Assembly: GCA_031266315.1 (NCBI GenBank)
Contig: JAISBG010000546.1
Coordinates: forward strand, 1 to 21,070
DNA from: Planctomycetaceae bacterium
GTDB taxonomy: Bacteria; Planctomycetota; Planctomycetia; Pirellulales; Thermoguttaceae
Reading direction: 5' to 3'
Length of the DNA: 21,070 nt
Shown in pieces: positions 1-21,060 of this stretch; the first letter of the stretch is position 1; each line of letters starts with the position of its first letter. The notes below the pieces were generated by a model, which saw only the letters and a list, made by a program, of their open reading frames with translations, searched no databases and was not told the origin of the DNA. A program made the position numbers and the translations under genes.

Positions 1-100
1 ACAGTGAATCAGATTAACGACGATAAATTGTGTTGCCTTCCGTTTTGGAGTCGAGTAAAACTCAACCGGCGCGACCGCCCAGCGGGCGGATCGCCCACCT
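1..100 (-). repeat. 143-bp hairpin-ended repeat, truncated by window start
   Basis: This is the reverse complement of the left and central parts of the element seen complete at 5899-6041. The match is nearly base for base, including the central segment around 10-65. The terminal hairpin is at about 72-94, with a CCGCCC/GGGCGG stem, a 3-nt loop and one bulged base, and the outer end AGGTGGG lies at 94-100. About 43 bp of the element lie outside the window. Confidence 0.85.
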
Positions 101-101
101 C

Positions 102-134
102 TTTTTTAACTACGGGGCGAAACATCAGTTATTA
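102..134 (-). repeat. 35-bp box abutting the 143-bp repeat
   Basis: A T-rich box starting TTTTTTAACTACGGGGCG follows directly after the 143-bp element. The same box is at 5862-5897 (opposite strand, again abutting the GC-rich end of a 143-bp element) and at 6103-6136. The combination seen here equals the combination at 5862-6041 in reverse complement, so the two travelled as one unit of roughly 180 bp. Positions 135-265 show nothing else recognisable. Confidence 0.65.
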
Positions 135-265
135 TTTTGACCGAAAAACAGAAATGATTATAATCGTTATTAATTTTTTAACCAGCCGGTTCTTTTGCCA
201 TCCTACTGACGTACCACTTGACACGTCTTTCTATCGGGCTACAATCACGAAATAATAAAAATTGA

Positions 266-480
266 GTGGTTGGTGTTCGCCGGGATGTTCTCATTTTGGC
301 GGGTAACAGGGAATCCGGTGACAGGTTCACGCCTCAGCCCGGAACGGTCCTCGCCGCTGTAATCGGTGTGTATTCGCAAGAATACCGAAAGCGTCAATGC
401 TTTTTTTGACCATTGATGTCCCGAAAGGGAGATTGAGAAGGTCGATGCTTTAAGCCGAGAGTCAGAAGACCTACCAGCAC
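266..480 (+). promoter_or_regulatory. Cobalamin riboswitch (B12 element)
   Basis: A cis-acting RNA that binds adenosylcobalamin or a related corrinoid and represses the downstream gene. The conserved core is recognisable in order: CAGGGAATCCGGTG (307-320), CCGCTGTAATCGGTG (354-368), and the 3' B12 box AGTCAGAAGACCTACC (460-475). A closing P1 helix can be drawn between GTG-G-TTGGT (266-274) and ACCAGCAC (473-480), with one bulge and one G-U pair. It lies on the strand of the DUF1559 gene that starts 160 nt downstream. The ligand class (adenosyl- or methyl-/aquocobalamin) cannot be told by eye. Confidence 0.93.
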
Positions 481-496
481 TTTTGTAGGACTTTTT
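468..496 (+). terminator. Possible riboswitch-linked terminator hairpin
   Basis: CCTAC (470-474) can pair with GTAGG (485-489). An outer G468-C491 pair sits across an A-A mismatch, and CTTTTT (491-496) follows. The 5' arm overlaps the 3' strand of the riboswitch P1 helix, so the two structures exclude each other. In that arrangement P1 formation would oppose, not favour, this hairpin, so the sign of control is unclear. The stem is only five pairs with a 10-nt loop and the U-tract is short, so this is a weak candidate. Confidence 0.3.
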
Positions 497-1860: not shown

Positions 1861-1965
1861 AGGTGGGCGACCTTTCGCTGAAAGGTCGCGTCGGCGTACT
1901 CGCCAACTGTGAATCAGATTAACGACGGCAAATGGTGTTGCCAATGGTTTTGGAATCCAATTGCC
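1861..1965 (-). repeat. 143-bp repeat, partial copy (right arm and centre)
   Basis: It starts with AGGTGGGC and a perfect 10-bp hairpin (GCGACCTTTC with loop GCT) at 1867-1889. The GTCGGC-type hairpin (degenerate here) and the conserved centre GAATCAGATTAACGACGGCA (1911-1930) follow. The sequence diverges after about 1965 and the left arm is missing. Positions 1792-1860, between the DUF1559 stop and this copy, hold no recognisable element. Confidence 0.75.
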
Positions 1966-1996
1966 AAACGAAAATTAGGGGCAAGCCGGCTATTTT

Positions 1997-2118
1997 GACC
2001 CCATTAGGGGTCGAATATTTATAGAACAAATGTTGCGGTATTTAACCGACCCTTTGGGTCGAATATTTTATTTATAGAACAAACGTTGTGTTTTTTATAG
2101 GCGACCCCTAACGGGGTC
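1997..2118 (+). repeat. Cluster of GACCC/GGGTC hairpin repeats
   Basis: Three short hairpins of a second family lie here: GACCCCATTAGGGGTC (1997-2012), GACCCTTTGGGTC (2048-2060) and GACCCCTAACGGGGTC (2103-2118). The first two are each followed by a conserved tail, GAATATTT then ATAGAACAAA, with variable bases between. A further GACCCTTTGGGTCGAATAT copy is at 4840-4857. The loop and the outer pairs vary while the stem stays paired. Confidence 0.7.
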
Positions 2119-2146
2119 AGAATAGCCCTCCCAAAACAAGGGCAAA

Positions 2147-2222
2147 GTCGGCTATCGCCGACGCAACCGTTCAGCGAACCTTTTGATAAATAGCCCACCT
2201 CCTATTAACAGGTTGCCCACCT
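2147..2222 (+). repeat. 143-bp repeat, right-arm fragment
   Basis: It begins with the GTCGGC-TATC-GCCGAC hairpin (2147-2162). A damaged version of the terminal hairpin follows, with extra bases around 2180-2194, and then two GCCCACCT ends (about 2193-2200 and 2215-2222). No left arm or centre precedes it. Confidence 0.65.
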
Positions 2223-2237
2223 CGAAAAAGCTAAGAG

Positions 2238-2389
2238 TGGTGGGCGATCCTTTCGCTGAAAGGTCGCGCCGGTTGACTCCGCATTGACTCCAAAACGGTT
2301 GGCAACACAATTTGCCGTAGTTAATTTGATTCATAGTCGGCGAGTACGCCAACGCGACCTTTTAACAAATAGCGAAAGGTTGCCCGCCT
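2238..2389 (+). repeat. 143-bp repeat, complete copy (tandem unit 1)
   Basis: The left hairpin at about 2243-2266 has a CCTTTC/GAAAGG stem with the bulged T typical of left arms. The centre contains CAACACAATTTGCCGTAGTT. The right arm ends at GCCCGCCT and carries a 7-nt insertion (2365-2371) that breaks the terminal stem. The copy is preceded by TCGAAAAAGCTAAG (2222-2235), which recurs before the next copy. Confidence 0.85.
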
Positions 2390-2404
2390 CGAAAAAGCTA
2401 AGAA

Positions 2405-2550
2405 TGGTGGGCGATCCTTTCGCTGAAAGGTCGCGCCGGTTGACTCCAGTATTGACTCTAAAACGGTTAGCAACACAATTTGCCGTAGTTAATTTGATTC
2501 ACAGTCGGCGAGTACGCCGACGCAACCTTTCAGCGAAAGGTTGCCCACCT
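2405..2550 (+). repeat. 143-bp repeat, complete copy (tandem unit 2)
   Basis: A direct tandem duplicate of the copy at 2238, with a period of 167 bp that includes the TCGAAAAAGCTAAG spacer. The right terminal hairpin at 2522-2544 is a perfect 10-bp stem with loop AGC. Only 55 bp separate the end of this copy from the FecCD permease start codon, so any promoter for that gene must lie in those 55 bp, inside the repeat, or further upstream. Confidence 0.87.
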
Positions 2551-2605
2551 TAGATTGCCGCCTACAAATACCAGAATATCAGTATTATAAAGTCTATTAG
2601 TTTCC

Positions 2606-3676
2606 ATGAATTTACCTTCCGTTAGCGACGAATATCATCAATACTTCCGGCGTAAATATATTCTGTTCGCGGGAATGGTTGTGTTGTTGCCGGTTGCGTT
2701 TTTCCTTTCAATTGCGATCGGTCCGGTCAAAATCAGTTTGGCGGAAGTTGTTCGGATTCTACTCGGTTGCGAAGCCCCCGAAACTCATGTCCGAATCGTT
2801 TATCATTTCCGGTTGCCACAAGCACTTGCCGCCGTGTTTGCCGGAGCCGGTTTGGCAATCTCCGGCGCAACCATGCAGGCAGTCCTGCGAAATCCGCTTT
2901 GCTCGCCCTTTACCTTAGGAATATCAGGTGCCGCCGCATTCGGTGCGGCATTGGTCATCTTCCTGAACGGCGGGGCTTTTACCGCAACTGCCGCAATCAC
3001 AACCACTTCAACCGCATCATGGTTTTTCGGTTCGGTTACCGCCGGTGCTTTTTTGAGTTCGTGCCTCGCTACCGGCTTGATTTTAACGTTGTCGGTCAAA
3101 CGTTCCGTCAAATCGGAAACAATTATCCTCATCGGTGTTGCTCTCGGTGCGTTTTACGGAGCGGGAACCATGATGCTCCAATATTTCGCCACCGAACGAC
3201 AACTTGCCGCAATGGTCTATTGGACTTTCGGCGACACGCAACGGGCAACATGGCACTCAGTCAAAATAATGAGCCTGTCCGTCGTTGTTTCGGTGATTTA
3301 TTTTATTTCACAGAGTTGGAACTACAACGCTCTGGTTTTAGGCGAAGAAAACGCACGGGCGTTGGGAGTTCCTGTCCGGCGAATACGGTTGGGAACGATG
3401 TTTTTCGCCTCACTGCTGACATCGGTGTTGGTAACATCGCTTGGAATTATCGGTTTTGTCGGATTGGTCATTCCGCACGGAGTTCGGCTCTGGGTCGGCT
3501 CCGACAACCGATTTGTGTTGCCCTGCTCAACGGTTTGCGGAGCCTTGCTCCTCCTTGTCGCCGACACCATCGCCCGAAGTATCACTCCGGGTTGCGTAAT
3601 GCCCGTCTCAATCCTCACCGCCTTTCTCGGTGCTCCCCTCTTCCTGTTAATGTTGCTGAATAGGAAGGAGGTTTAA
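2606..3676 (+). CDS. FecCD/BtuC-type ABC transporter permease
   Basis: A 356-aa inner-membrane permease of the FecCD family, which moves vitamin B12, iron-siderophores or haem from a periplasmic binding protein into the cytoplasm. The length is normal for the family. Family signatures are clear: RLPQALAAVFAGAGLAISG (69-87), RNPLCSPFTLGISGA (95-109), the EENARALG cytoplasmic loop near residues 246-253, GFVGLVIPHGVR near 286-297, and the closing GAPLFLLMLL. About ten membrane helices are expected. The ATG at 2606 fits the family N-terminus, though no strong ribosome binding site precedes it. No binding protein or ATPase gene is adjacent, which is odd because these are normally encoded together. 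The cobalamin riboswitch 2.1 kb upstream on the same strand hints at corrinoid as substrate; the sequence alone cannot separate B12 from iron-chelate transport. Confidence 0.92.
   Translation: MNLPSVSDEYHQYFRRKYILFAGMVVLLPVAFFLSIAIGPVKISLAEVVRILLGCEAPETHVRIVYHFRLPQALAAVFAGAGLAISGATMQAVLRNPLCSPFTLGISGAAAFGAALVIFLNGGAFTATAAITTTSTASWFFGSVTAGAFLSSCLATGLILTLSVKRSVKSETIILIGVALGAFYGAGTMMLQYFATERQLAAMVYWTFGDTQRATWHSVKIMSLSVVVSVIYFISQSWNYNALVLGEENARALGVPVRRIRLGTMFFASLLTSVLVTSLGIIGFVGLVIPHGVRLWVGSDNRFVLPCSTVCGALLLLVADTIARSITPGCVMPVSILTAFLGAPLFLLMLLNRKEV
3662..3671 (+). promoter_or_regulatory. Strong Shine-Dalgarno with no gene after it
   Basis: AGGAAGGAGG lies at the very end of the FecCD permease gene, the place where the ribosome binding site of an overlapping ATPase gene would normally sit. 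No ATG, GTG or TTG opening a convincing reading frame follows; the next bases are AT-rich repeat. It may be a relic of a deleted partner gene, or chance in the Arg-Lys-Glu-Val codons. Confidence 0.4.
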
Positions 3677-3686
3677 ATTTATCATC

Positions 3687-3721
3687 AAAAAAATTAATTA
3701 AAAAAATTAATTAAAAAAATT
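3687..3721. repeat. AT-rich 12-bp tandem repeat
   Basis: The unit AAAAAAATTAATT is repeated nearly three times with a 12-bp period. Each unit contains the self-complementary AATTAATT. It starts 10 bp after the permease stop codon. The low melting point could favour strand opening or transcript release, but no function is demonstrated. Confidence 0.8.
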
Positions 3722-3855
3722 TTCTCTGTGCCCTCTGTGGTAAAAAAGGAATTATGAGAGTTGCCCATTGATATAAAAACAAAAATTTGAATCGGGTTAA
3801 GATTTCCTTATATTGAAAAATATTCTGGATAAAAATTGGAGTCCATCTATTTTAT

Positions 3856-3882
3856 CGAACAGTTGTATGATACAATCGTTTG
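3856..3882. promoter_or_regulatory. Palindromic operator candidate upstream of the TetR gene
   Basis: TTGTAT-G-ATACAA (3863-3875) is a perfect 13-bp palindrome. The dyad extends outward: AAC (3858-3860) matches GTT (3878-3880), and C3856 matches G3882, with two unpaired positions on each side. It ends 57 bp before the TetR start codon. TetR-family repressors commonly bind such dyads in their own promoters, and a -10-like TATGAT (3866-3871) lies inside it. Autoregulation is inferred, not shown. Confidence 0.5.
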
Positions 3883-3939
3883 ATAGTTGTGTTTTTAACT
3901 TATTTATTCTTATTGAATTAACGTGTGACTATTTTAACA

Positions 3940-4572
3940 ATGACTGATACGGTTCAAATGCGGATTATTGAGGCGGCGGGACCGATTTTTGCTCAAAAGG
4001 GATTTGTGGCGACAACGGTACGTGAAGTTTGTGCGGCGGCGAAAGTGAATCAAGCCGCCATCAATTATTACTTTGGGAGCAAGGAAGGTTTGTACAAAGA
4101 AGTTTTTGCGTCCACTTATTCGTCTTTTACGCCGTTTCTTTTTGCCGGTGAACCGGATCAATCACGTCCGTTTGAAGATCGGTTTTATGAATTGATTGCG
4201 CAGCGAACCAAAAATATTTTTGCAACAGAGTTGATTGCGTGGAAGTCGCAACTGATTTTTCGTGAACTCCATGATCCGACACCGAGTTGCGGTGAAAAAC
4301 TTCAGGAATATATTATTCAGGATTACAAGGTGATAAATCGTTATCTTGACGAATATTTTGACCCGTCAACACCGGAACATATCCGTTGGAAAAGTATTTT
4401 CAGTATATTCGGATCGATTTTCTTCTACAAAAAATGCGGTTGGCTTTTACCGAAAATCGTTCTTGAAGACATACGCCAAGAGTCTTTTCAACCGGAACAA
4501 ATTGCGGCATTTGTGGTTCAGACTTTTTTTACCACCGCCGCCCCGTATCGGAAACAACCGACCAAAGAATAA
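3940..4572 (+). CDS. TetR/AcrR-family regulator, CerR-like
   Basis: A 210-aa DNA-binding repressor. Residues 8-55 form the TetR N-terminal domain: helix-turn-helix at about 26-45 with TTVREVCAAAKVNQAAINYY, then FGSKEGLYKEVF. The C-terminal half carries LIFRELHDPTP (105-115), characteristic of the CerR/YbiH-type (DUF1956) ligand-binding domain. Length is typical. The ATG at 3940 begins right before the first helix; a GTG at 3925 would add five residues, and neither has a clear ribosome binding site. Ligand and targets are unknown. Nearby candidates are its own gene, the FecCD permease 264 bp upstream and the MlaE permease downstream. In enterobacteria, relatives control efflux and envelope transport genes, which would suit this neighbourhood, but that is inference. 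Confidence 0.88.
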   Translation: MTDTVQMRIIEAAGPIFAQKGFVATTVREVCAAAKVNQAAINYYFGSKEGLYKEVFASTYSSFTPFLFAGEPDQSRPFEDRFYELIAQRTKNIFATELIAWKSQLIFRELHDPTPSCGEKLQEYIIQDYKVINRYLDEYFDPSTPEHIRWKSIFSIFGSIFFYKKCGWLLPKIVLEDIRQESFQPEQIAAFVVQTFFTTAAPYRKQPTKE

Positions 4573-4600
4573 ATTCTTATTGCCGTAATTGAAAAGTTCG

Positions 4601-4632
4601 TTTTAAACACGAACCACACGAAAATTCGCGGA
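4601..4632 (+). repeat. Short repeat TTTTAA..CACACGAAAAT, copy 1
   Basis: TTTTAAACACGAACCACACG (4601-4620) followed by AAAATTCGCGG. Related copies are at 8742-8775 (opposite strand) and 20997-21027. It abuts the 143-bp element at 4636. Confidence 0.6.
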
Positions 4633-4635
4633 AAG

Positions 4636-4778
4636 AGGTGGGCAATCCGCCCGCTGGGCGGTTGCGCCGGTTGACTCGACATTGATTCCAAAACAGAAAG
4701 CAATATCATTTGCCGTCGTTAATCTAATTCACAGTCGGCTAACGCCGACGCGACCTTTCAGCGAAAGGTCGCCCACCT
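4636..4778 (+). repeat. 143-bp hairpin-ended repeat, complete copy
   Basis: Exactly 143 bp from AGGTGGGC to GCCCACCT. The left hairpin (about 4642-4665) has a GCAA(T)CCGCCC arm, loop GCT and a GGGCGGTTGC arm. The GTCGGC-TAAC-GCCGAC hairpin (4734-4749) and the right terminal hairpin (4750-4772), a perfect 10-bp stem with loop AGC, complete it. It lies 63 bp after the TetR stop. A further scrap of the right end, AAAGGTTGCCCACC, lies at about 4783-4796. Confidence 0.92.
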
Positions 4779-4839
4779 ACAAAAGGTTGCCCACCAACAC
4801 CGGTTGAGCGATAATCAATTCCAATAGACAACATTCGCC

Positions 4840-4870
4840 GACCCTTTGGGTCGAATATCTGTAGAGAGGC
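4840..4870 (+). repeat. GACCC/GGGTC hairpin repeat, isolated copy
   Basis: GACCCTTTGGGTC (4840-4852) is followed by GAATATCTGTAGAG, matching the second hairpin and tail of the 1997-2118 cluster. The remainder of the gap to 4998 is AT-rich with no recognisable element. Confidence 0.6.
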
Positions 4871-4998
4871 GGTAGGATCGTTAAAATCATTAAAGTTTTC
4901 TAAATTTCACAGCGAAGGAAGGTCGATAAATCAAATTAACCTTATAGAATCAAATATTAAACGTTAAACTGTCAAACTTAATCGATTTAAATATTAAA

Positions 4999-5853
4999 AT
5001 GTCCGAACCATTACTGCCGCAACAACAGGGAACGAAGAATTTGATTTTCGGAATCGGCGAAATTTGTGCGGAACGGTTGGTTCGTTTGGGGCAATTTGCG
5101 GATTTTTGTTTTCAAACCTTTACTTGGCTCAGTTGGAAATTGCCGCGCCGCGAAATATTGAGCCAATCGTTTGACACAATTGGTGTTTTAAGTCTTCCGA
5201 TTATCATGCTTACGGGTATGTTTATCGGTATGGTTTTAGCCGTACAAACGTTTACGCAATTCAAACAGATTGGTATGGAATCGGCTCTTGGCGGTGTGAT
5301 TAGTTTGTCCCTGATTCGCGAACTCGGTCCTGTTCTTGCCGCAACCATGCTTGCTGGACGTGTCGGCAGTTCTATTGCCGCAGAACTCGGAACCATGAGA
5401 GTTACGGAACAAATTGATGCTCTCTCCACAATGGGAACCAGTCCCATTCATCATCTTGTTGTTCCAAGACTTTTGGCATGTCTGTTTTTAATCCCCGCAC
5501 TGACTATTATCGCTGATATTACGGGAATTGTCGGCGGCGCGTTCTACTGCATTGAAATACTGGATATTCAAGGACATTATTATTGGGAAAACGCCCAATC
5601 TTTTGTCGGAGTGTTCGACATTTTAGCCGGAACATTCAAAAGTGTTTTTTTCGGAATTAGTATTGCTCTGATTAGTTGTTATCAAGGTTTTCACTGCAAC
5701 AGCGGAGCCGAAGGTGTTGGAAAAGCCGCGACATTATCGTTTGTATGTTCGTTTGTTGTCATTTTGTTCCTTGATTTGTTACTCGGAATCGTCATTGACC
5801 GAATTACTCTCATGCTCGGTATTACGTCCGGTGTTATCAAAGGCGGAATGTAA
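4999..5853 (+). CDS. mlaE: MlaE-type lipid ABC transporter permease
   Basis: A 284-aa inner-membrane permease of the MlaE/YrbE (DUF140) family, which with an MlaF-type ATPase and an MCE-domain protein moves phospholipids between the two membranes and maintains outer-membrane asymmetry. The family core is nearly perfect: residues 106-150 read LIRELGPVLAATMLAGRVGS then SIAAELGTMRVTEQIDALST, followed by MGTSPI. Hydrophobic segments lie at about 62-84, 155-180, 205-230 and 247-275. Length is slightly above the usual 260 aa because of an N-terminal extension of about 20 residues. No ribosome binding site is evident before the ATG at 4999. Neither the ATPase (mlaF) nor an MCE protein (mlaD) is adjacent; the following gene is unrelated, so partners must be encoded elsewhere. 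Confidence 0.93.
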   Translation: MSEPLLPQQQGTKNLIFGIGEICAERLVRLGQFADFCFQTFTWLSWKLPRREILSQSFDTIGVLSLPIIMLTGMFIGMVLAVQTFTQFKQIGMESALGGVISLSLIRELGPVLAATMLAGRVGSSIAAELGTMRVTEQIDALSTMGTSPIHHLVVPRLLACLFLIPALTIIADITGIVGGAFYCIEILDIQGHYYWENAQSFVGVFDILAGTFKSVFFGISIALISCYQGFHCNSGAEGVGKAATLSFVCSFVVILFLDLLLGIVIDRITLMLGITSGVIKGGM

Positions 5854-5861
5854 TTTTTTTT

Positions 5862-5897
5862 AGTTAATAGCTCATGTTCCGCCCCGTAGTTAAAAAA
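5862..5897 (+). repeat. 35-bp box abutting a 143-bp repeat
   Basis: The reverse complement of the box at 102-134 (TTTTTTAACTACGGGGCGGA on the minus strand), ending at the first base pair of the 143-bp copy at 5899. A third copy in the opposite orientation at 6103-6136 flanks the far side, so the 143-bp copy here is enclosed by inverted boxes. Confidence 0.65.
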
Positions 5898-5898
5898 G

Positions 5899-6041
5899 AG
5901 GTGGGCGATCCGCCCGCTGGGCGGTCGCGCCGGTTGAGTTTTACTCGATTCCAAAACGGAAGGCAATACAATTTATCGTCGTTAATCTGATTCACTGTCG
6001 GCTATCGCCGACGCAACCTTTTAGCAAAAGGTTGCCCACCT
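5899..6041 (+). repeat. 143-bp hairpin-ended repeat, complete copy
   Basis: Exactly 143 bp. The left hairpin has a GCGA(T)CCGCCC arm with loop GCT. The middle hairpin is GTCGGC-TATC-GCCGAC. The right hairpin (6013-6035) is GCAACCTTTT with loop AGC, a perfect 10-bp stem in which two base pairs differ from the 4636 copy on both strands at once. It starts 45 bp after the mlaE stop. Confidence 0.92.
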
Positions 6042-6070
6042 AATGATTGTTCACTTTTAACAAAAATTCC

Positions 6071-6103
6071 AGTGGGAAACACCGAATCCGATAGAATTAG
6101 GAC
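6071..6103 (+). repeat. Short repeat GGGAAACACC..ATCCGATAGAAT, copy 1
   Basis: It matches the reverse complement of 21029-21060 at about 27 of 32 positions, sharing AATCCGATAGAAT exactly. It is followed directly by another copy of the 35-bp box (6103-6136). Confidence 0.6.
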
Positions 6104-6128
6104 TTTTTAACTACGGTGTGGAACATCA

Positions 6129-6223
6129 GTTAATAGTGAATAATTCGCAAACACGCTATTTACCGAAACGTATTAAATCCGCTTGCGTCCCCAACTATTC
6201 ACTATTAACTATCCACTATTAAC
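6129..6223 (+). promoter_or_regulatory. Inverted repeat in the leader of the small membrane-protein gene
   Basis: GTTAATAGTGAATA (6129-6142) is the exact reverse complement of TATTCACTATTAAC (6196-6209). A second, one-mismatch partner follows immediately at 6210-6223. The 5' arm could pair with either 3' arm, and the second ends 10 nt before the start codon at 6234. This could influence translation, but the two 3' arms also look like a simple tandem repeat of a type dispersed in these intergenic regions. Confidence 0.4.
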
Positions 6224-6233
6224 TAAATCGGTT

Positions 6234-6725
6234 ATGTCAACAGAATCGACAGCAGAACTTACGGCAGAGCCGGCAACACAAGAAAATTCGGTGGCGTCTG
6301 ATTTTCTCGCACAACTCGAATCGCTTGAGATTCCGCCGAACATCGACCCGAAACTTCTTGCTCTGTGGTTGGAACGGGAACGCGAAACAATTAAAAATCA
6401 GGAAAAATCGAAAAAAAAACCAAAATCAAAATTTCAACATAGAAAGTTAAGCCGTCTTTTTGCGGCTTACATTGGCATTATTGTATTTTGTTTTGCGATT
6501 GTTTTGGGTTTTGTGCAACAGAAAGAAACGTTTGAAATTCTCAATAATGCTTGTTTATCGTTCCTTGTTTACGTTGTTATTGGATTTTTTGTTGGTTTGG
6601 TGGCTGAATATTGTGTGAATGATTCTGTCGAAACACTTCTCCGTGAGATTATCCGCCGCAGTGATGAAGCCGCCGCAAATAATAGCGTAACACCGGGCAG
6701 GGAGATTCCTGATCAGGAATCTTAA
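6234..6725 (+). CDS. Small membrane protein of unknown function, two helices
   Basis: A 163-aa protein that I do not recognise. The first 50 residues are acidic and rich in Glu, Ser, Thr and Pro. Residues 54-73 are strongly basic (KSKKKPKSKFQHRKLSR). Two hydrophobic helices follow (about 76-94 and 106-125), then an amphipathic C-terminal stretch with LLREIIRRSDEAA. The positive patch before the first helix suggests that both termini are cytoplasmic. The ATG at 6234 is preferred because the reading frame further upstream translates an intergenic repeat. It stands alone, converging on hisS, with a repeat-laden leader. A role at the inner membrane is all that can be said. Confidence 0.75.
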   Translation: MSTESTAELTAEPATQENSVASDFLAQLESLEIPPNIDPKLLALWLERERETIKNQEKSKKKPKSKFQHRKLSRLFAAYIGIIVFCFAIVLGFVQQKETFEILNNACLSFLVYVVIGFFVGLVAEYCVNDSVETLLREIIRRSDEAAANNSVTPGREIPDQES

Positions 6726-6830
6726 AAGAGGAATAGTTACGGAATTTTTATACTATACTGTGTTAGGGGTGTATTTGGTATTTTTCAAGTTTCTAAATAA
6801 TTATTTTCTTGATTGATTCTGAAAAACCGA

Positions 6831-7024
6831 ATAGCCCGATAGGGCTTCATTTTCGTAACCGCAGGTCTTTGACCTGCGGTTACGAACCAAGGAAACCACT
6901 GCCTGAAAGGCAGAATTTTAAGTCGTTACCGTGTTAAGTTCTGCCTTTCAGGCAGTAAGAGGTTTGTCGTTACACCGCAGGTCAAAGACCTGCGGTTATG
7001 AAAAATGAAGCCCTATCGGGCTAT
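6831..7024. repeat. Mirror-ordered nested hairpins between convergent genes
   Basis: Three different hairpins appear in order A-B-C and then in reverse order and orientation C-B-A. A is 6831-6853 and 7002-7024, 23 nt exact inverted copies containing AGCCCGATAGGGCT. B is 6852-6886 (16-bp perfect stem, loop TTT) and 6975-6995 (9-bp stem, loop AAA). C is 6899-6913 and 6941-6955 (6-bp stem CTGCCT/AGGCAG). Each unit folds locally and the whole block can also fold as one long cruciform. Located between the converging 6234 gene and hisS, it could end transcription from both sides, although no U-tract follows the stems. Confidence 0.88.
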
Positions 7025-7110
7025 CCGATTTTGATACCAGTTAAATAAATAGTTATGCCAACTTTTAACAAAAATTACACTGAATAGTTATAAAAACACT
7101 AATTTTGTAA

Positions 7111-8406
7111 CTAACGCAGTATAATTTCGTGTTCTCCTAATTCTGAAACTTCAATTATTTTGTTATATCCTTGTTCAATTAATTTATCAATTTGTACTTT
7201 CATATTTTTTGATTTTGGCGAAACAAGAATCCGTTGTCCTTTTCCTCTCAATGTATTGGCTTTAACAAATACATTCTCAATAGAATCGTATCCTAAATTC
7301 TTTGAAATCAAATAAGCCGTAGAATTGCTGTCAATTTGCGGTTTCAATCCTTTTGATTTTAATATTGAAACAATGCGTTCAAAACCTATGGAAAAACCGC
7401 TTGCTGCTGCTTGAATTTTATTATCGTTATATTTCCCGATCATTTCATCATAACGTCCGCCTCCCGCAATAGACGATGACAAATTGGATTTATCAACAAG
7501 TTCAATTTCAAAAATGGGTCCTGTGTAGTAAGACATGCCCCTAACAAGTGTCGGATCAAAAACAACTTTTCCTTTATTGAGAATAATTTTTCTAACACAA
7601 AGGATAATATCGTTCAGATTATTTATGACCTCACTTGAAAGAACACCGTCAAGTTTGTTGCCGAGAAAATCGATACAAGAATCAAAATAAATTCCTTCTT
7701 TGAAAAAATTACAATATTTATGGACATTTTCTTCGGCAAATTTTTTTGCACAATTCATTGATTTTAAAATATTCATTACGCCTTCTAATCCGATTTTATC
7801 CATCTTGTCAAGTGCAATGAATACATCATCATATTTATCTTGCGGAAAATCACAAATTGCCGCCATTGCTTTTAATATTCGGCGGTCATTAATTCGGACG
7901 TTAAAATCGCCTAGTCCCAATTGAAAGAGCATTTCAGATGTTGCAGATATTAATTCTATTTCTGCTAAATTGCTGTTATCTCCGATAATATCAATATCGC
8001 ATTGTGTAAATTGACGGAAACGTCCTTTTTGCGGTCTGTCTGCCCGCCAAGCGTTTCCAATTTGTAACGATTTGAAGGGCGTTGGCAAAGAACTCATATT
8101 GTTTGCGTAGAATCGTGCTAACGGGACAGTTAAATCGTATCTTAGTCCGCCGTCACACAAATCGGATATTTTGTCCGCTTTCTCTAATTTTTCACCGCGT
8201 TTCAAAATTTTAAAAATAAGCGTTTCATTTTCACCGCCTTGTTTATTGGTTAAATTTTCGATATGTTCAATGGCAGGTGTATCAATTAAAGAAAATCCAT
8301 ACCTTTTGTAAGTTTCCTTAATTTTGTTCATCGCGTATTCCCGCAATTCCATATCAGCCGGAAGTTGTTCGGGCATCCCTTTTACCGGTGTTTTTATAAA
8401 ACTCAT
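7111..8406 (-). CDS. hisS: Histidine--tRNA ligase
   Basis: A 431-aa class II aminoacyl-tRNA synthetase that charges tRNA-His with histidine in the cytoplasm. All family signatures are present: KGMPEQLP at the N-terminus (9-16), LRYDLTVPLARF (88-99), motif 2 RADRPQKGRFRQFTQCDIDI (121-140), the histidine-binding LVRGMSYYTG (287-296) and AGGGRYD (314-320), and motif 3 GFSIGFERI (337-345). An anticodon-binding domain fills the last 80 or so residues. LVRGMSYY replaces the more usual LVRGLDYY. The codons are markedly more AT-rich than in the neighbouring genes, with many AAA, ATT and TTA, and the gene is the only one on the minus strand. Repeats flank it on both sides. This pattern suggests acquisition from an AT-rich donor such as a Firmicutes or Bacteroidetes lineage, though it may be the sole hisS of this genome. 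No clear ribosome binding site precedes the ATG. Confidence 0.96.
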   Translation of the reverse strand: MSFIKTPVKGMPEQLPADMELREYAMNKIKETYKRYGFSLIDTPAIEHIENLTNKQGGENETLIFKILKRGEKLEKADKISDLCDGGLRYDLTVPLARFYANNMSSLPTPFKSLQIGNAWRADRPQKGRFRQFTQCDIDIIGDNSNLAEIELISATSEMLFQLGLGDFNVRINDRRILKAMAAICDFPQDKYDDVFIALDKMDKIGLEGVMNILKSMNCAKKFAEENVHKYCNFFKEGIYFDSCIDFLGNKLDGVLSSEVINNLNDIILCVRKIILNKGKVVFDPTLVRGMSYYTGPIFEIELVDKSNLSSSIAGGGRYDEMIGKYNDNKIQAAASGFSIGFERIVSILKSKGLKPQIDSNSTAYLISKNLGYDSIENVFVKANTLRGKGQRILVSPKSKNMKVQIDKLIEQGYNKIIEVSELGEHEIILR

Positions 8407-8502
8407 AATGTGTTACTTTTATTTTATTTGTAAATTAAAAATTATATAATGATTCATTGAAATTTTCGTTAAAGATAAGCAATCATCAGGTGGGTGACCA
8501 CA

Positions 8503-8645
8503 AGGTAGGCGACCTTTCGCTGAAAGGTCGCGTCGGCGTTAGCCGACAGTGAATTAGATTAACGACGGCAAATTGTGTTACCTTCCGTTTTGGAGTCAAT
8601 AACAAACCAACCGGCGCGACCGTTCAGCGAACGGGTCGCCCACCT
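8503..8645 (-). repeat. 143-bp hairpin-ended repeat, complete copy
   Basis: Exactly 143 bp, in the opposite orientation to the copies at 4636 and 5899. The right-arm hairpin (8509-8531) is a perfect 10-bp stem with loop GCT on this strand. The left arm, at 8615-8638, uses a third stem version, CCGTTC/GAACGG. Outside it AATCATCAGGTGGG (8481-8494) is the exact inverted copy of CCCACCTGATGATT (8638-8651), extending the terminal inverted repeat into the flanks. It occupies the space between the divergent hisS and 8922 genes. Confidence 0.92.
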
Positions 8646-8921: not shown

Positions 8922-11900
8922 ATGATGATGTTACGAAACGTTTATCGATTCTTGATTTTGTGGTGTATCCTGATGATTTCTGTGTCACTTGTATTGGGAC
9001 AGGAAAAGGCGGTCAACGAAAAAACCGTCAAGGAGAAGACGGTTTATATTCCGTACGAAAAACTGCGGAATATTTTTGAACAACCCGGTCGCGGAGTTTT
9101 CGTACCATACGATGAATTTAAAGCCTTGTGGGATGTCGCAAGAGCGACGCAACCTGTTAAGCCGTCTGATGCGGTTCCGGTGAGTGCCATGATTACCGAA
9201 ACATCAAGCACGGCAACTATTACCGAAGAAGTTGTTCAAGTTGAATCAACGGTTTCGATTGAACTTTTGAAAGACGGTTGGCATGAAATTCCGCTTCGGC
9301 TTGCTGATGTTGCGATTACTAAAGCCGTGATCGGCGAAGAAAAAGCAAAAATTCTCGGCAATTCCGGCGGCGGTTACCGGCTTCTTGTCGAAAAGAAAAA
9401 AACGGAAAATGCGGAAAATGAAGAGCGGAAACCGGAACATTTGGAATTGACGTTACACTATGCCAAGAGTGTTGAGAAGTCGCCGGGTCGTAATTCCGTA
9501 TCGTTTGAAGTTCCGCAATCTCCGCTGGGACACTGGAAAATTATTGTACCGGAATCAGGAGTCAAAATTGATTTTACGCCACTGGTTGCCGCAGCAGAGC
9601 AAAACGCAACAGAAAATAAAACGGTTTTCGAAGCGTTTGTCGGTACTGTACCGAAAATTCAGATTGCTTGGACTCCGAAAGCGGAAGGGGCAACCGGTTT
9701 AGAGGCTCTGACCAGTGTTCAGTTGTTACAACAAACAACGGTTGACGAAAATATTTTGCGGACATCGGCGCGGTTTGATTATTCGATTAGCCGTGCGGCG
9801 ATTACCGATCTTGCGGTTCGGATTCCCAAAGATCAAAAAATTGCCGCTGTTTTTGATCCGAATATTCGCAAGTGGTCTGTTGAACCGAAAGACGATGCTC
9901 AGATTATTCGTATCGAATTATTTGAACCGGCGGACAGACACCAAGCGGTTCAACTGGAATTTGAAAAATTACGCAACAACAATGAGTCGAAGGTGATCAT
10001 TCCTGAAATATCGGTTATTGATGCGGGACGTATGCAAGGGATTCTGGTTGTCCGTGCCGCCGACGAATTGAATATCGAAACGGTTACGTCAACCGGTTTG
10101 TTGCGAATGGATTCTTCAGAACTGCCGGAGTTGTTACGGAAATCAAGTAAAACGAGAGATGCCGCTTATCGTATTCCGGCAACATCTTATGCGTTGGAAG
10201 TTGAAGTCAGCAAGGCGGAACCAAGAATTATCGCAACATCGCAAATTATTATAAAAATTCACTCCAATGGAATTGAAACAGAAATGTTGACGTTGTTCGA
10301 TATTGAAAAAGCCGGTCTGTTTCAGGTCTCGTTTGAAATTCCCGTCAATGCCGGTTCGCCGTTTGTTTCCGGTAGAGAGGCACATTTTCGTTCAGATAAT
10401 CAGGCGAAGGAATATTTGTATCAACCGGTTCAGGTTGATTCCCACTCGCTTGCACCGGCTGCCGATAACGCCTTAACGCAAACGCTCACGGTTAATTTCA
10501 AACGGAAAGCCATTGGCAAAGTCGGACTGGTCATTAGGTTGCTCAAATCGTTGAACGTACCGGATTTACAATCGCCAAAAGGAACATCGACAGATATTCC
10601 TTTTATTCTACCGACGTTGAGCAAGGGCATTGCCGAAAAATCGGACGGAAAATTACTTATTCGTGCCGAACCCGCTTTTCGGATTAGTCCGGTTAGTTTT
10701 GAAGGGTTACAATCGATTTCGTTGCAACAATTACAATCGTCTGCATGGCATCTTCCAATAGTACAGGATGCGCAATTGGGTTTTCTTGTTGCAGATTCCG
10801 GCGCGAAATTGACTCTTCGCGTTGAACGCCGTCAACCGCAATTGACGTTACGGGAACTTCGTACAGTGCATATTGAAGAAGGGTTGATTAAAAACGAAGC
10901 GAAATTTTATTACGAAATTCTTTTCAATACAATTAAATCGCTTCGAATTGATGTTCCAGAAAAATTGTCCGGTCGTCTGAACATTAGCAGAACAATAAAA
11001 GGAAAAGGAAATACTTCCAACGCTCAAAATGACGCAGCCGATTGGCGGGAACTAATGATGATGCCGCAACCGGACGATGTGGCGGAGGGTTATGTTGCGT
11101 GGGAATTTGCAACGAAATCAAGTCTGTTCGGAACGGGCGTGTTGGAACTCACATGGGAAGACGAACTCGCACAACCCGAAATCGGAAAAAGTTTGTCCAT
11201 AGATATTCCCCGCCTGCTCCCGAAAAAACAACAACCGGCAGACCGTGTTTGGGGACAAATTATTGTTTCAAAGTCGCAAGGTATTGATATTGGTGAATCG
11301 GAAACAATAAAAGGACTCAAACCGATTGATCCGCAATATGATATTTCCGAACAAGATCGAATTGATAATGCGGTAGCGGCGTTTGAATTTCATGACGATT
11401 GGTCGCTTCAATTGACGGCAACTCGTTACAAAATTGAAGAGGTTAAACGAACAAGTATTGAGCAAGGACTTGTCCGTGCTGATTTGGGTTTTTCAAAATT
11501 CGGTACGGAAATTTCCGCACAAGCCTTGTTTCGGATTCGGAGTGTTCTGCAACGTTTAGACCTTGTCATGCCGCCGCATTCGAAAATAAACAGTGTCCAC
11601 ATTAACGGGCAGCGTGTTGTTTTGGAAACGGACAACGCCTCTGAAACAACAACGCCGCGTTTTATGATTCCGCTAACGTCGGTTCCGCCGGACACGCCGT
11701 TTTTGCTTGATATTCGTTACTTTATTCCTGCCGACCGTGAAAACCGTAAAATTTGTATTGAAATTCCGTCTTTTCCCGATTCCAACGGTTCTTCGGAACC
11801 GGCTGTACAAAAAGTTTATCTTGCGGTTTATGTACCGGAAGGCTGGGTGATTGCCGGTTACGAAGGAATTTGGTCGAAGGATTTTTTGTTTTATCGCGGT

Positions 11901-12446
11901 TCAGAGTTTACCGGTGTTTTCAATCAGCCGGAAGTGTCTTCGGTATTTTCCAATACATTTTTTGAAGTGTCCAATGATTTATCGAACGATTTTTCTGTGA
12001 ACGGAACGCCGTATCTTTTTTCCGCATTGCACCCGCGAGAAGGTGATTTCCTTCAATTGTATATTTGGGGAGATTTACAAAGCGGTCTTATATTCTTTAT
12101 CGCTACAATTATTATCGGTCTTTATCTGTTGCGTTATTCATGGACGAAACGTTTTCAGATTACGATTTATCTGGTAATTCTTTGTGTCCTGCTCGGTTTT
12201 GCATTTCCGACATGGACACAACTTTTATCTGTGAAATCAACTTCCGGCTGGGGTATTATTATTGTTGCATTTTGTTGGATATTGCAAGCCTTTCATCAAG
12301 GTTTGTCCGTTTTTCGAAACAACTGGAAAACCAATCGCCGACGACATGTTGACGATCAACAACGTACTGAAAATCAACCGTGTACCGAAAATCAATCTGC
12401 CGAATCGGTTTCAACCGAAGAAAGGAGCGAAAACCATGACAACTAA
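8922..12446 (+). CDS. Giant exported protein, unrecognised family (single module)
   Basis: A 1174-aa protein of no family I can name. A signal peptide covers residues 1-26 (hydrophobic VYRFLILWCILMISVSLVLG, then QEK). Two 'PY' boxes follow, VYIPYEKLRNIF (41-52) and VFVPYDEFKALW (59-70). The long middle region is beta-rich, alternating polar and hydrophobic residues, with no evident catalytic motif. D367-A-G-R-M-Q-G has a counterpart in the second module of the next protein. The C-terminus has three hydrophobic helices (about 1057-1074, 1082-1098 and 1110-1127) and a polar tail rich in Glu and Asn. Most of the chain should therefore lie outside the cytoplasmic membrane, anchored at its end. 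AAGGAG (8912-8917) precedes three ATG codons (8922, 8925, 8928). It overlaps the next gene by 11 bp, so the two are likely translated together. Confidence 0.9.
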   Translation: MMMLRNVYRFLILWCILMISVSLVLGQEKAVNEKTVKEKTVYIPYEKLRNIFEQPGRGVFVPYDEFKALWDVARATQPVKPSDAVPVSAMITETSSTATITEEVVQVESTVSIELLKDGWHEIPLRLADVAITKAVIGEEKAKILGNSGGGYRLLVEKKKTENAENEERKPEHLELTLHYAKSVEKSPGRNSVSFEVPQSPLGHWKIIVPESGVKIDFTPLVAAAEQNATENKTVFEAFVGTVPKIQIAWTPKAEGATGLEALTSVQLLQQTTVDENILRTSARFDYSISRAAITDLAVRIPKDQKIAAVFDPNIRKWSVEPKDDAQIIRIELFEPADRHQAVQLEFEKLRNNNESKVIIPEISVIDAGRMQGILVVRAADELNIETVTSTGLLRMDSSELPELLRKSSKTRDAAYRIPATSYALEVEVSKAEPRIIATSQIIIKIHSNGIETEMLTLFDIEKAGLFQVSFEIPVNAGSPFVSGREAHFRSDNQAKEYLYQPVQVDSHSLAPAADNALTQTLTVNFKRKAIGKVGLVIRLLKSLNVPDLQSPKGTSTDIPFILPTLSKGIAEKSDGKLLIRAEPAFRISPVSFEGLQSISLQQLQSSAWHLPIVQDAQLGFLVADSGAKLTLRVERRQPQLTLRELRTVHIEEGLIKNEAKFYYEILFNTIKSLRIDVPEKLSGRLNISRTIKGKGNTSNAQNDAADWRELMMMPQPDDVAEGYVAWEFATKSSLFGTGVLELTWEDELAQPEIGKSLSIDIPRLLPKKQQPADRVWGQIIVSKSQGIDIGESETIKGLKPIDPQYDISEQDRIDNAVAAFEFHDDWSLQLTATRYKIEEVKRTSIEQGLVRADLGFSKFGTEISAQALFRIRSVLQRLDLVMPPHSKINSVHINGQRVVLETDNASETTTPRFMIPLTSVPPDTPFLLDIRYFIPADRENRKICIEIPSFPDSNGSSEPAVQKVYLAVYVPEGWVIAGYEGIWSKDFLFYRGSEFTGVFNQPEVSSVFSNTFFEVSNDLSNDFSVNGTPYLFSALHPREGDFLQLYIWGDLQSGLIFFIATIIIGLYLLRYSWTKRFQITIYLVILCVLLGFAFPTWTQLLSVKSTSGWGIIIVAFCWILQAFHQGLSVFRNNWKTNRRRHVDDQQRTENQPCTENQSAESVSTEERSENHDN

Positions 12447-21028: not shown

Positions 21029-21060
21029 CCCTGATTCTATCGGATTAGGTGTTTTCCACC
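21029..21060 (-). repeat. Short repeat GGGAAACACC..ATCCGATAGAAT, copy 2
   Basis: An inverted copy of 6071-6103, with five mismatches over 32 bp. The window ends 10 bp later. Confidence 0.6.

What the first reader, a model, noticed from the sequence alone, without database searches (positions are those of the whole stretch)
1861..8645. A 143-bp repeat family whose hairpin stems covary between copies
Complete copies at 4636-4778, 5899-6041 and 8503-8645 are each exactly 143 bp; slightly longer ones are at 2238 and 2405, and partial copies are at 1-100, 1861 and 2147. Each element has a terminal hairpin at both ends in inverted arrangement. Stems differ between copies but stay paired. In the right arm GCGACCTTTC becomes GCAACCTTTC or GCAACCTTTT with matching changes on the other side. 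In the left arm the stem is CCGCCC, CCTTTC or CCGTTC, each with its complement. The GCT/AGC loop is constant. That is selection or a copying mechanism acting on the hairpin, as in REP/REPIN elements moved by RAYT transposases.
Basis: partly seen in the sequence, partly recalled or inferred. Interest (0 to 1): 0.7.

Follow-up and report, generated by a model that had tools for sequence, protein, structure and literature searches.

The report
Hairpin-pair core of a bacterial MITE
The 143-base repeat is the inner part of a small jumping DNA element present in hundreds of copies in this planctomycete genome; its two hairpins change sequence but stay paired, so their folded shape seems to matter for how the element spreads, although the evidence points to a different mover than the one first proposed.

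Summary
Stem covariation is real: the two sides of the common variable pairs are linked at r2 0.69-1.0, centre sites 6-20 bp apart at about 0.05. Private changes are mostly one-sided, so resident copies decay while spreading lineages stay paired. The hairpins are REP-like: GTGG/GTAG directly 5' of the stem in 271 of 286, in inverted pairs as in REPINs.
The 143 bp are not the whole mobile unit. In another genus (G074) the core lies between GTAAT... inverted ends, about 245 bp in all, with 8-bp target duplications (8 of 14 copies match at 7 or more of 8; 0 of 20,000 permutations). Here many cores sit in a second MITE type (11 of 28 exact duplications). No RAYT was found in this MAG, and Y1 genes do not track the repeats in the genus. 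Best reading: a REPIN-like hairpin pair carried inside DDE-type MITEs. QMITE2 is a partial precedent.

The parts
4636..4778 (+). complete 143-bp core, left hairpin CCGCCC type, right hairpin CCTTTC type
5899..6041 (+). complete 143-bp core inside a longer composite (5871-6129)
8503..8645 (-). complete 143-bp core, left hairpin CCGTTC type
2238..2389 (+). longer core (152 bp), right hairpin with enlarged loop; first of two tandem copies 167 bp apart
2405..2550 (+). core of 146 bp, second of the tandem pair
1..100 (-). core cut by the window's first base; the stretch 1-134 is 96% complementary to 5865-5998, that is to the 5899 copy with its left flank
   Evidence: inverted repeat I1
1861..2199 (.). 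one copy with right-type hairpins at both ends, split by another hairpin repeat at 1988-2127
   Evidence: read by eye
1988..2127. inverted GACCCC/GGGGTC hairpins inside the split copy; by eye like the motif arrayed upstream of the Y1 gene on contig C697 (the exact pattern does not match here)
5871..5896 (+). outer end of type C left of the 5899 core
6104..6129 (-). outer end of type C right of the 5899 core; TTAATAG stands directly outside both C ends (5864-5870 and 6130-6136)
6079..6100 (-). type-A-like end (3 mismatches) between the 5899 core and the right C end
103..128 (-). type C end of the copy cut by the window's first base
8446..8466 (+). weak type-B end (4 mismatches) outside the right hairpin of the 8503 core
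21031..21052 (+). type A end (1 mismatch), element cut by the window's last base

Best explanation
The 143-bp repeat is the interior of a non-autonomous transposable element (MITE). The interior is a REPIN-like pair of GTRG-tagged hairpins in inverted order around a conserved centre. The basic mobile unit is about 245 bp: GTAAT... terminal inverted ends (type B) flank the core, and insertion makes an 8-bp target duplication. It is most likely moved in trans by a DDE transposase that reads those ends, perhaps of the IS66/ISBst12 type (inferred from end sequence and duplication length; that gene was not looked for). In this genome the unit was then caught inside other MITE families (ends of type A and type C) and copied on with them. 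The stems stay paired because only lineages whose hairpins fold keep producing copies; a copy that has landed decays. Shown: covariation, tag, ends, target duplications, one nested copy, distribution. Inferred: transposase type, order of capture, and that folding acts during propagation.
For: Target duplications: B-core-B copies in G074, 8 of 14 match at 7 or more of 8 bases (5 exact), 0 of 20,000 permutations; A-core-A copies in G000, 11 of 28 exact, 0 of 20,000 permutations. Elements with B ends or A ends but without the core exist (outer copy in L242; L171, L173, L183), so ends and core are separable. GTGG/GTAG tag in 271 of 286 hairpins of G000, 14 of 14 in G014 and 36 of 36 in G074. The core is intergenic: 0 of 138 inside an open frame of 200 codons or more. 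Pairing. Decay after insertion: states seen in one copy only, 35 of 5725 centre cells and 14 of 2920 stem cells; 10 of the 12 stem pairs concerned have one rare side. ISDge4 of the ISBst12 group has ends GTGACTACTCAGCA/GTAACTGCTCAGCA and an 8-bp repeat (PMC12898284, passages), close to type B GTAAYTATTCAG.
Against: Only 27 of 138 cores in this MAG have type-A ends on both sides; 42 have one, 62 none, 7 lie too near contig edges, so most copies here show no intact element. The nine B/B copies of G000 show no clear duplication (8-mer identity 0.514 against 0.438 for mixed pairs), and 6 of 14 in G074 have none or a poor one. No autonomous partner was recognised in the DNA fetched; the one DDE family searched, PF12762, is absent from G000; IS66 transposases were not searched for. 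Nothing I know of DDE transposition explains why inner hairpins should stay paired. A Y1 gene lies about 1.7 kb from one core copy in G074.
Confidence: 0.6

Rival explanations
1. True REPIN: the core is excised and inserted as single-stranded DNA by a RAYT-type Y1 transposase that reads the GTRG tag and the hairpin, and the MITE ends are passengers or landing sites.
For: GTRG tag, inverted pair, constant loop and compensatory changes; cores occur with several outer ends and with none; no clear duplication at the core's own edges in 62 end-less copies, as expected for Y1 movement; all three module-bearing genomes of genus g55 have Y1 genes, and in G074 one lies about 1.7 kb from a core copy.
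Against: No RAYT in the MAG; G013, G008 and G005 (88, 77 and 86% complete) have many modules and no Y1 match, and G010, G020 and G015 have Y1 but no module match; by eye 9 of 10 Y1 loci lie among other hairpins and 1 of 18 has a module in the stretch searched; B-core-B copies carry target duplications.
Confidence: 0.2
2. Arm-to-arm copying: during propagation one arm of each hairpin is used as template for the other (fold-back template switching or hairpin repair), so pairing is kept by a copying mechanism and not by selection.
For: Between nearest copies (27 disjoint pairs, centre divergence 6.1%) 56 base pairs differ on both sides and stay Watson-Crick, against 16 changed on one side and 1 other double change; that is more paired change per base pair (56 of 540) than single change per centre site (122 of 2013). 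Two variable pairs 7 bp apart in the right stem are unlinked in the commonest class (r2 0.0008, n = 121) and all four combinations exist as perfect hairpins: 41, 28, 20 and 12 of 101.
Against: Rare, recent stem changes are mostly one-sided, so correction is not quick in resident copies. Exchange of whole hairpins between copies could also bring in double changes. Some mismatched haplotypes occur in 2-3 copies.
Confidence: 0.25
3. A structured RNA or regulatory element kept for the host's benefit.
For: Multi-hairpin plan shared by two genera; one copy folds better as a single strand than 200 of 200 shuffles; slightly denser in convergent gaps.
Against: No Rfam family reaches its gathering score in the window's copies. 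The 96 of 138 cores that could be placed lie in same-direction, convergent and divergent gaps at 0.95, 1.38 and 0.81 per kb (59, 22 and 15 copies in 61.9, 15.9 and 18.6 kb), so no class of gap is avoided. Model matches range from 0 to the cap of about 150 between species of one genus, as for mobile DNA. Private changes accumulate in stems about as in the centre.
Confidence: 0.08
4. Covariation is only shared descent: a few old hairpin types copied many times.
For: Most hairpins belong to about ten haplotypes; variable pairs 1-2 bp apart on one arm can be strongly linked (left pairs 7-9 r2 0.66-0.85, right pairs 5-6 r2 0.90).
Against: Centre sites have lost linkage by 6-20 bp (mean r2 0.05-0.06; 0.195 at 1-5 bp) while the partners of pair 3, 18-19 nt apart, keep r2 0.69 and 0.85; whole-arm shuffles never reach the observed pairing; the stems differ again, still paired, in other species and in another genus.
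Confidence: 0.04

Closest known systems
QMITE2 of Coxiella burnetii (MITE carrying a GTAG REP), as summarised in the review PMC10969869 (passages only)
   Same: MITE of about 190 bp with 23-29 bp ends, 7-9 bp direct repeats, a 113-145 bp core and a GTAG REP; cut copies that have lost their ends look like REPs.
   Different: Here the core is an inverted pair of REP-like hairpins, occurs in two planctomycete genera, shows strong stem covariation, and sits inside at least two other MITE types as well. The QMITE2 sequence itself was not compared.
REPINs with RAYTs (Bertels and Rainey 2011, PMC3116915; passages only)
   Same: Inverted REP doublets in intergenic DNA, high copy number, compensatory changes on the two sides of the hairpin.
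   Different: No RAYT found associated with them; terminal inverted ends and an 8-bp target duplication lie outside the doublet.
GTAG-tagged REP superfamily (PMC3733652, abstract and passages; PMC2817692, part of a table)
   Same: A stem-loop directly preceded by GTAG or GTGG; head-to-head dimers; GTAG families reported in the PVC superphylum.
   Different: The sequence families found here were not compared with the published ones; here an inner second hairpin and MITE ends are added.
IS66 family, ISBst12 group (ISDge4; PMC12898284, passages)
   Same: Ends beginning GTAAC/GTGAC..CTCAG and an 8-bp direct repeat.
   Different: No transposase gene inside; only part of the end sequence agrees; no IS66 gene was looked for in these genomes.

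Membership tests
REP (GTAG-tagged) | stem-loop with a GTAG-type tetranucleotide directly 5' of the stem | tested here: met
   GTGG or GTAG in 271 of 286 hairpins of G000, 14 of 14 in G014, 36 of 36 in G074, 10 of 10 in G007, 17 of 17 in G013 (no foot was required, but at least 9 of 10 pairs and a GCY loop were; the loci of the other genomes had been chosen because they hold such hairpins)
REP (GTAG-tagged) | many intergenic copies | tested here: met
   652 arm matches in the genome; 0 of 138 cores inside an open frame of 200 codons or more
REPIN | two REPs in inverted order forming one unit | tested here: met
   77 inverted pairs 80-300 bp apart among 232 hairpin modules, 58 of them left-right; 204 of 292 modules paired with a looser pattern
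REPIN | cognate RAYT (Y1) gene flanked by the same REPs | tested here: not met
   NF047646 absent from G000; 1 of 18 Y1 loci has one module, plus a core copy about 1.7 kb from a Y1 gene in G074; G013, G008 and G005 have modules and no PF01797 match. All genomes are incomplete MAGs
REPIN | insertion without target duplication at the doublet's own edges | tested here: inconclusive
   No clear duplication at core edges in 62 end-less copies, but copies with ends show duplications outside the core
MITE (DDE type) | terminal inverted repeats | tested here: met
   Type B ends facing each other in 14 of 20 G074 regions; type A ends in G000 and relatives
MITE (DDE type) | target site duplication | tested here: met
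   8 bp; B in G074: 8 of 14 copies at 7 or more of 8; A in G000: 11 of 28 exact; B/B in G000 (9 copies): not clear
MITE (DDE type) | no coding capacity; a related autonomous element exists | tested here: inconclusive
   Too short to code. No transposase recognised by eye in the longest frames of the 8 facing end pairs 0.7-4.5 kb apart in the fetched DNA; PF12762 absent from G000
IS66/ISBst12 derivative | ends starting GTAA and 8-bp direct repeat | tested here: met
   13 of 14 G074 pairs have GTAAT at one end or both (the search pattern itself began so) and 8 of 14 have 8-bp duplications at 7 or more of 8; compared with PMC12898284 and PMC11946415 (passages)
IS66/ISBst12 derivative | IS66-type transposase able to use these ends | not tested

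The most novel reading that the evidence does not exclude
A REP doublet has become the standing cargo of DDE MITEs and has changed vehicles at least twice (type B, then type A and type C ends), and each round of copying repairs its hairpins by using one arm as template for the other. Hairpin arms then evolve in concert inside a double-strand transposon that, by current models, has no use for hairpins.
Probability: 0.18. Interest if true: 0.72.

Novelty: new variant of a known kind. Interest (0 to 1): 0.46.

Why it matters
REPINs and MITEs are usually treated as two classes of small bacterial mobile DNA, one moved as single strands by Y1 enzymes and the other by DDE enzymes (own knowledge of the field). 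Here a REPIN-like module rides inside DDE-type elements in two genera and keeps its stems paired. That offers a natural series (hundreds of copies, several vehicles, many species) for asking what keeps hairpins paired in mobile DNA: selection on propagation, or copying between arms.

Tried and rejected
RAYT next to the repeats: not found for the genomes held, with the G074 exception told above. Larger IS of which the copies are internal deletions (the finder's second refutation): 2 candidate long pairs among 292 modules, one being the split window copy and the other spanning 3.3 kb, whose contents were not examined. The 8 facing A or B end pairs at 0.7-4.5 kb were judged by eye from the first 60 residues of their longest frames, without a family search, not to be transposons. 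IS1595-type transposase as partner of the 8-bp duplications: none in G000. Known RNA family: only a cobalamin riboswitch reached its gathering score, outside the repeats; in 4500-6250 two matches at E 1 or below, one of them lying on the 4636 core (mir-1468, 23.6 bits against 95), are far below their gathering scores. Orthologous empty sites in relatives about 87% identical in coding DNA: intergenic DNA too diverged to place the junctions. Age test within G000: copies with A ends on both sides are slightly closer to their nearest neighbours than end-less copies (medians 0.063 and 0.078, p 0.048), too weak to use. One search returned nothing because of an error in my script; repeated. The alignment behind the covariance model was filtered for pairing, so its pair counts are not used as evidence of covariation; model matches per genome were capped at about 150 and at 69 with stricter filters. 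A-core-A copies number 28 because the flank length and the mismatch limit differed.
Full report
WHAT WAS CLAIMED AND WHAT IS THERE. The window is contig C514 of a 4.24-Mb MAG in 883 contigs, 65.8% complete. DUF1559/pilin-type and other genes and the record title of a relative of its genus, JAISQS010000165.1, a Planctomycetaceae MAG, place it in the planctomycetes. The hairpin variants and the constant loop are as described. The pieces at 1861 and 2147 belong to one copy split by another repeat.

COPY NUMBER. A pattern for the hairpin arm has 652 exact matches in the MAG (325 forward, 327 reverse) and none when read backwards. In the 95 contigs I read, window included (618 kb), 139 non-overlapping full cores were found, of which the 138 no longer than 180 bp were aligned. 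Lengths cluster near 143-145, 117-119 and 167-170 bp (61 contigs; some symmetric copies counted on both strands). None of 138 lies within an open frame of 200 codons or more.

ANATOMY OF THE CORE. Left hairpin: 10 pairs with a bulged T, loop GCT, then GCCGGTTGA. Right hairpin: 10 pairs, loop GCT, then a second hairpin GTCGGC...GCCGAC. Between them lies a centre with its own partial palindrome. Left-right is the main combination (58 of 77 pairs), right-right occurs (9) and left-left is rare (3); in the other 7 one end was not typed. Directly before the stem stands GTGG or GTAG (271 of 286), the tag of GTAG-type REPs (PMC3733652, abstract and passages; PMC2817692, part of a table). In G074 the first stem pair is G-C in 23 hairpins and C-G in 13 while the tag stays, which fixes the border between tag and stem.

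COVARIATION. Among 111 left and 161 right hairpins, 83 and 132 have all ten Watson-Crick pairs; whole 3' arms shuffled among copies never reach this in 2000 trials (maxima 31 and 44). Before this count 4 of 115 and 11 of 172 pattern matches with fewer than five pairs were dropped. To separate pairing from shared descent I compared linkage. The two sides of one pair are linked at r2 0.69-1.0 for left pairs 3 and 7-9 and 0.74-0.97 for right pairs 3, 5-7 and 10; the rarer variants of pair 2 are linked less (0.15 left, 0.53 right). Centre sites have mean r2 0.195 at 1-5 bp, 0.057 at 6-10 bp and 0.052 at 11-20 bp, while the partners of pair 3 are 18-19 nt apart. Along one arm, variable pairs 1-2 bp apart can be linked (left 7-9, 0.66-0.85; right 5-6, 0.90), and left pair 3 with pairs 7-9 at 0.17-0.18. 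Two variable pairs of the right stem 7 bp apart have r2 0.041 in all 161 hairpins and 0.0008 in the commonest class (n = 121), and all four combinations occur as perfect hairpins (41, 28, 20 and 12 of 101). A crossover between those two pairs would break pairing, so double changes must have recurred or one arm must have been copied from the other.

TEMPO. In 73 copies with both arms parsed and no demand on pairing, states seen in one copy only make up 35 of 5725 centre cells and 14 of 2920 stem cells. Of the 12 stem pairs concerned, 10 have one rare side (6 mismatched, 3 G-T, 1 still Watson-Crick) and 2 have both. Resident copies therefore decay almost as the centre does. Yet the common polymorphism is paired: 32 of 1460 stem pairs are not Watson-Crick. 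Between nearest copies (27 disjoint pairs, centre divergence 6.1%) there are 56 paired double changes, 16 single ones and 1 other double change. Pairing is thus kept in the lineages that produce copies. Selection for folding during propagation, exchange of whole hairpins, or copying between arms could each do that; these data do not decide.

OUTER LAYERS. Aligning flanks showed that many cores have repeated ends further out. Type A (CTGATTCTACCGKATTAGGTGT) has 351 matches in the MAG and occurs in 5 of 21 genomes of the genus (up to 2 mismatches). 27 of 138 cores have it on both sides, 42 on one, 62 on none and 7 could not be judged (0 of 276 in the reversed control). A-core-A units of 244-362 bp (28 copies) carry 8-bp duplications of an AAAATTTT-like target: 11 of 28 exact, permutation mean 1.2, 0 of 20,000 reach it. 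In G005 and G019, elements of about 189-217 bp with A ends lack the core; one carries a Y1-type hairpin cassette instead (four elements, judged by eye). Type C (CTSATGTTMCGCACCGTAGTTAAAAA) flanks the window copy at 5899 (5871-5896 and 6104-6129); a type C element without the core on L125 has matching 8-bp flanks, TTACTTAA, read by eye.

THE BASIC UNIT. The decisive case is G074, a 92%-complete MAG of another genus of the family. Facing pairs of type B ends (GTAATATATCAGTGGAATTTT) were found in 14 of 20 regions fetched around model matches; 12 pairs are 223-256 bp apart and two are 134 and 277 bp apart. Their interiors align to the core, centre included, though several (L249, L253, L254, L257, L259) are truncated or divergent. 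8 of 14 have flanking octamers identical at 7 or more of 8 (5 exact), against a permutation mean of 1.0 and 0 of 20,000. One unit (239 bp) lies inside another B-ended element that by eye has no core, with the exact duplication GTTTTTTA. In G000 type B sequence is also found between A ends and cores in some copies, so the likely order is B-core-B first, then capture by A and C; this order is an inference. The nine B/B copies of G000 themselves give no clear duplication.

DISTRIBUTION. Sequence families differ between species while the plan stays the same in the loci read.

Y1 AND RAYT. PF01797 matches in 14 of 21 genomes of the genus. 11 of 15 module-bearing and 3 of 6 module-free genomes have it. 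NF047646 is absent from G000, and its single Y1 protein scores as IS200 (63.4 bits against a cut-off of 55) and not as RAYT (21.6 against 80). Of 10 Y1 loci read, 9 lie by eye among other hairpins. Of 18 Y1 loci searched with R1, one (L144) has one module about 1 kb from the gene. Against this: G074, G109 and G118 have modules and Y1 genes (five, two and five PF01797 matches), G096 and G028 have Y1 genes with no module and two module matches, and on G074 contig C10 a Y1 gene (7705-8049) lies about 1.7 kb from the core copy in L242.

COMPARISON. It works like a MITE by its ends and duplications and looks like a REPIN inside. Compensatory changes in REPINs are in print (PMC3116915, passages). 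A MITE with a GTAG REP is in print too: QMITE2, as described in a review (PMC10969869, passages). The type B ends resemble those of ISDge4, an ISBst12-group IS66 element with an 8-bp repeat (PMC12898284, passages); IS66 ends are said to start GTAAGCG (PMC11946415, passage). Searches for REP/REPIN/RAYT with planctomycetes, MITE with planctomycetes, ISBst12 with miniature elements (no paper) and REP with MITE and target duplication listed no paper whose title or shown abstract describes this family; of the papers listed I saw passages of PMC3733652, PMC6006769, PMC3116915, PMC10969869 and PMC2817692, and only the listing of the rest.

VERDICT. A real and strong case of covarying hairpins, in a REPIN-like pair that is the cargo of DDE-type MITEs. 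It is a new variant of known kinds, not a new kind. What keeps the stems paired inside such an element is open and testable.

Noticed in passing
L031 1396-1860 (G000:C697) and the Y1 loci L137-L145: One to three Y1 (IS200-like) matches occur in 14 of 21 genomes of the genus, and by eye 9 of 10 loci lie among short hairpin repeats that differ from genome to genome; this looks like a REPtron-type arrangement with an IS200-class enzyme.
   Followed up: partly
L176 1308-1524 (G019): An A-ended MITE of 217 bp carries a Y1-type hairpin cassette in its interior.
   Followed up: no
window 6823-7032: Nested inverted repeats (AGCCCGATAGGGCTTC..., ACCGCAGGTC...GACCTGCGGT, TGCCTGAAAGGCAG) of other repeat families.
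   Followed up: no
window 254-492: Cobalamin riboswitch (RF00174, 71.3 bits) upstream of a DUF1559 gene at 604-1791, with a FecCD permease gene at 2606-3676.
   Followed up: no
window 8922-12446 and 12262-20964: Two very long open frames (1174 and 2900 codons); no Pfam match for the first, the second was not searched.
   Followed up: no
L091 and L218, and flanks of right hairpins printed: Tandem runs of tag plus 5' half of the stem (GGTGGGYRACCTTCATTTTA and similar) stand outside some right hairpins, as if half-hairpins had been copied repeatedly.
   Followed up: no
window 6128-6225: A repeat of about 100 bp (TAGTGAATAATT.../AACTATTCACTATT) matches at many places in several genomes of the genus.
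   Followed up: no
flanks of left hairpins printed: A recurrent stretch like CACGAAAATTCGCGAAAAG precedes many left hairpins, with and without A ends.
   Followed up: no
G074 contig C10, 7705-8049 and the core copy at about 9704-9942: A Y1 gene lies about 1.7 kb from a B-core-B copy in the other genus; the DNA between was not examined.
   Followed up: no
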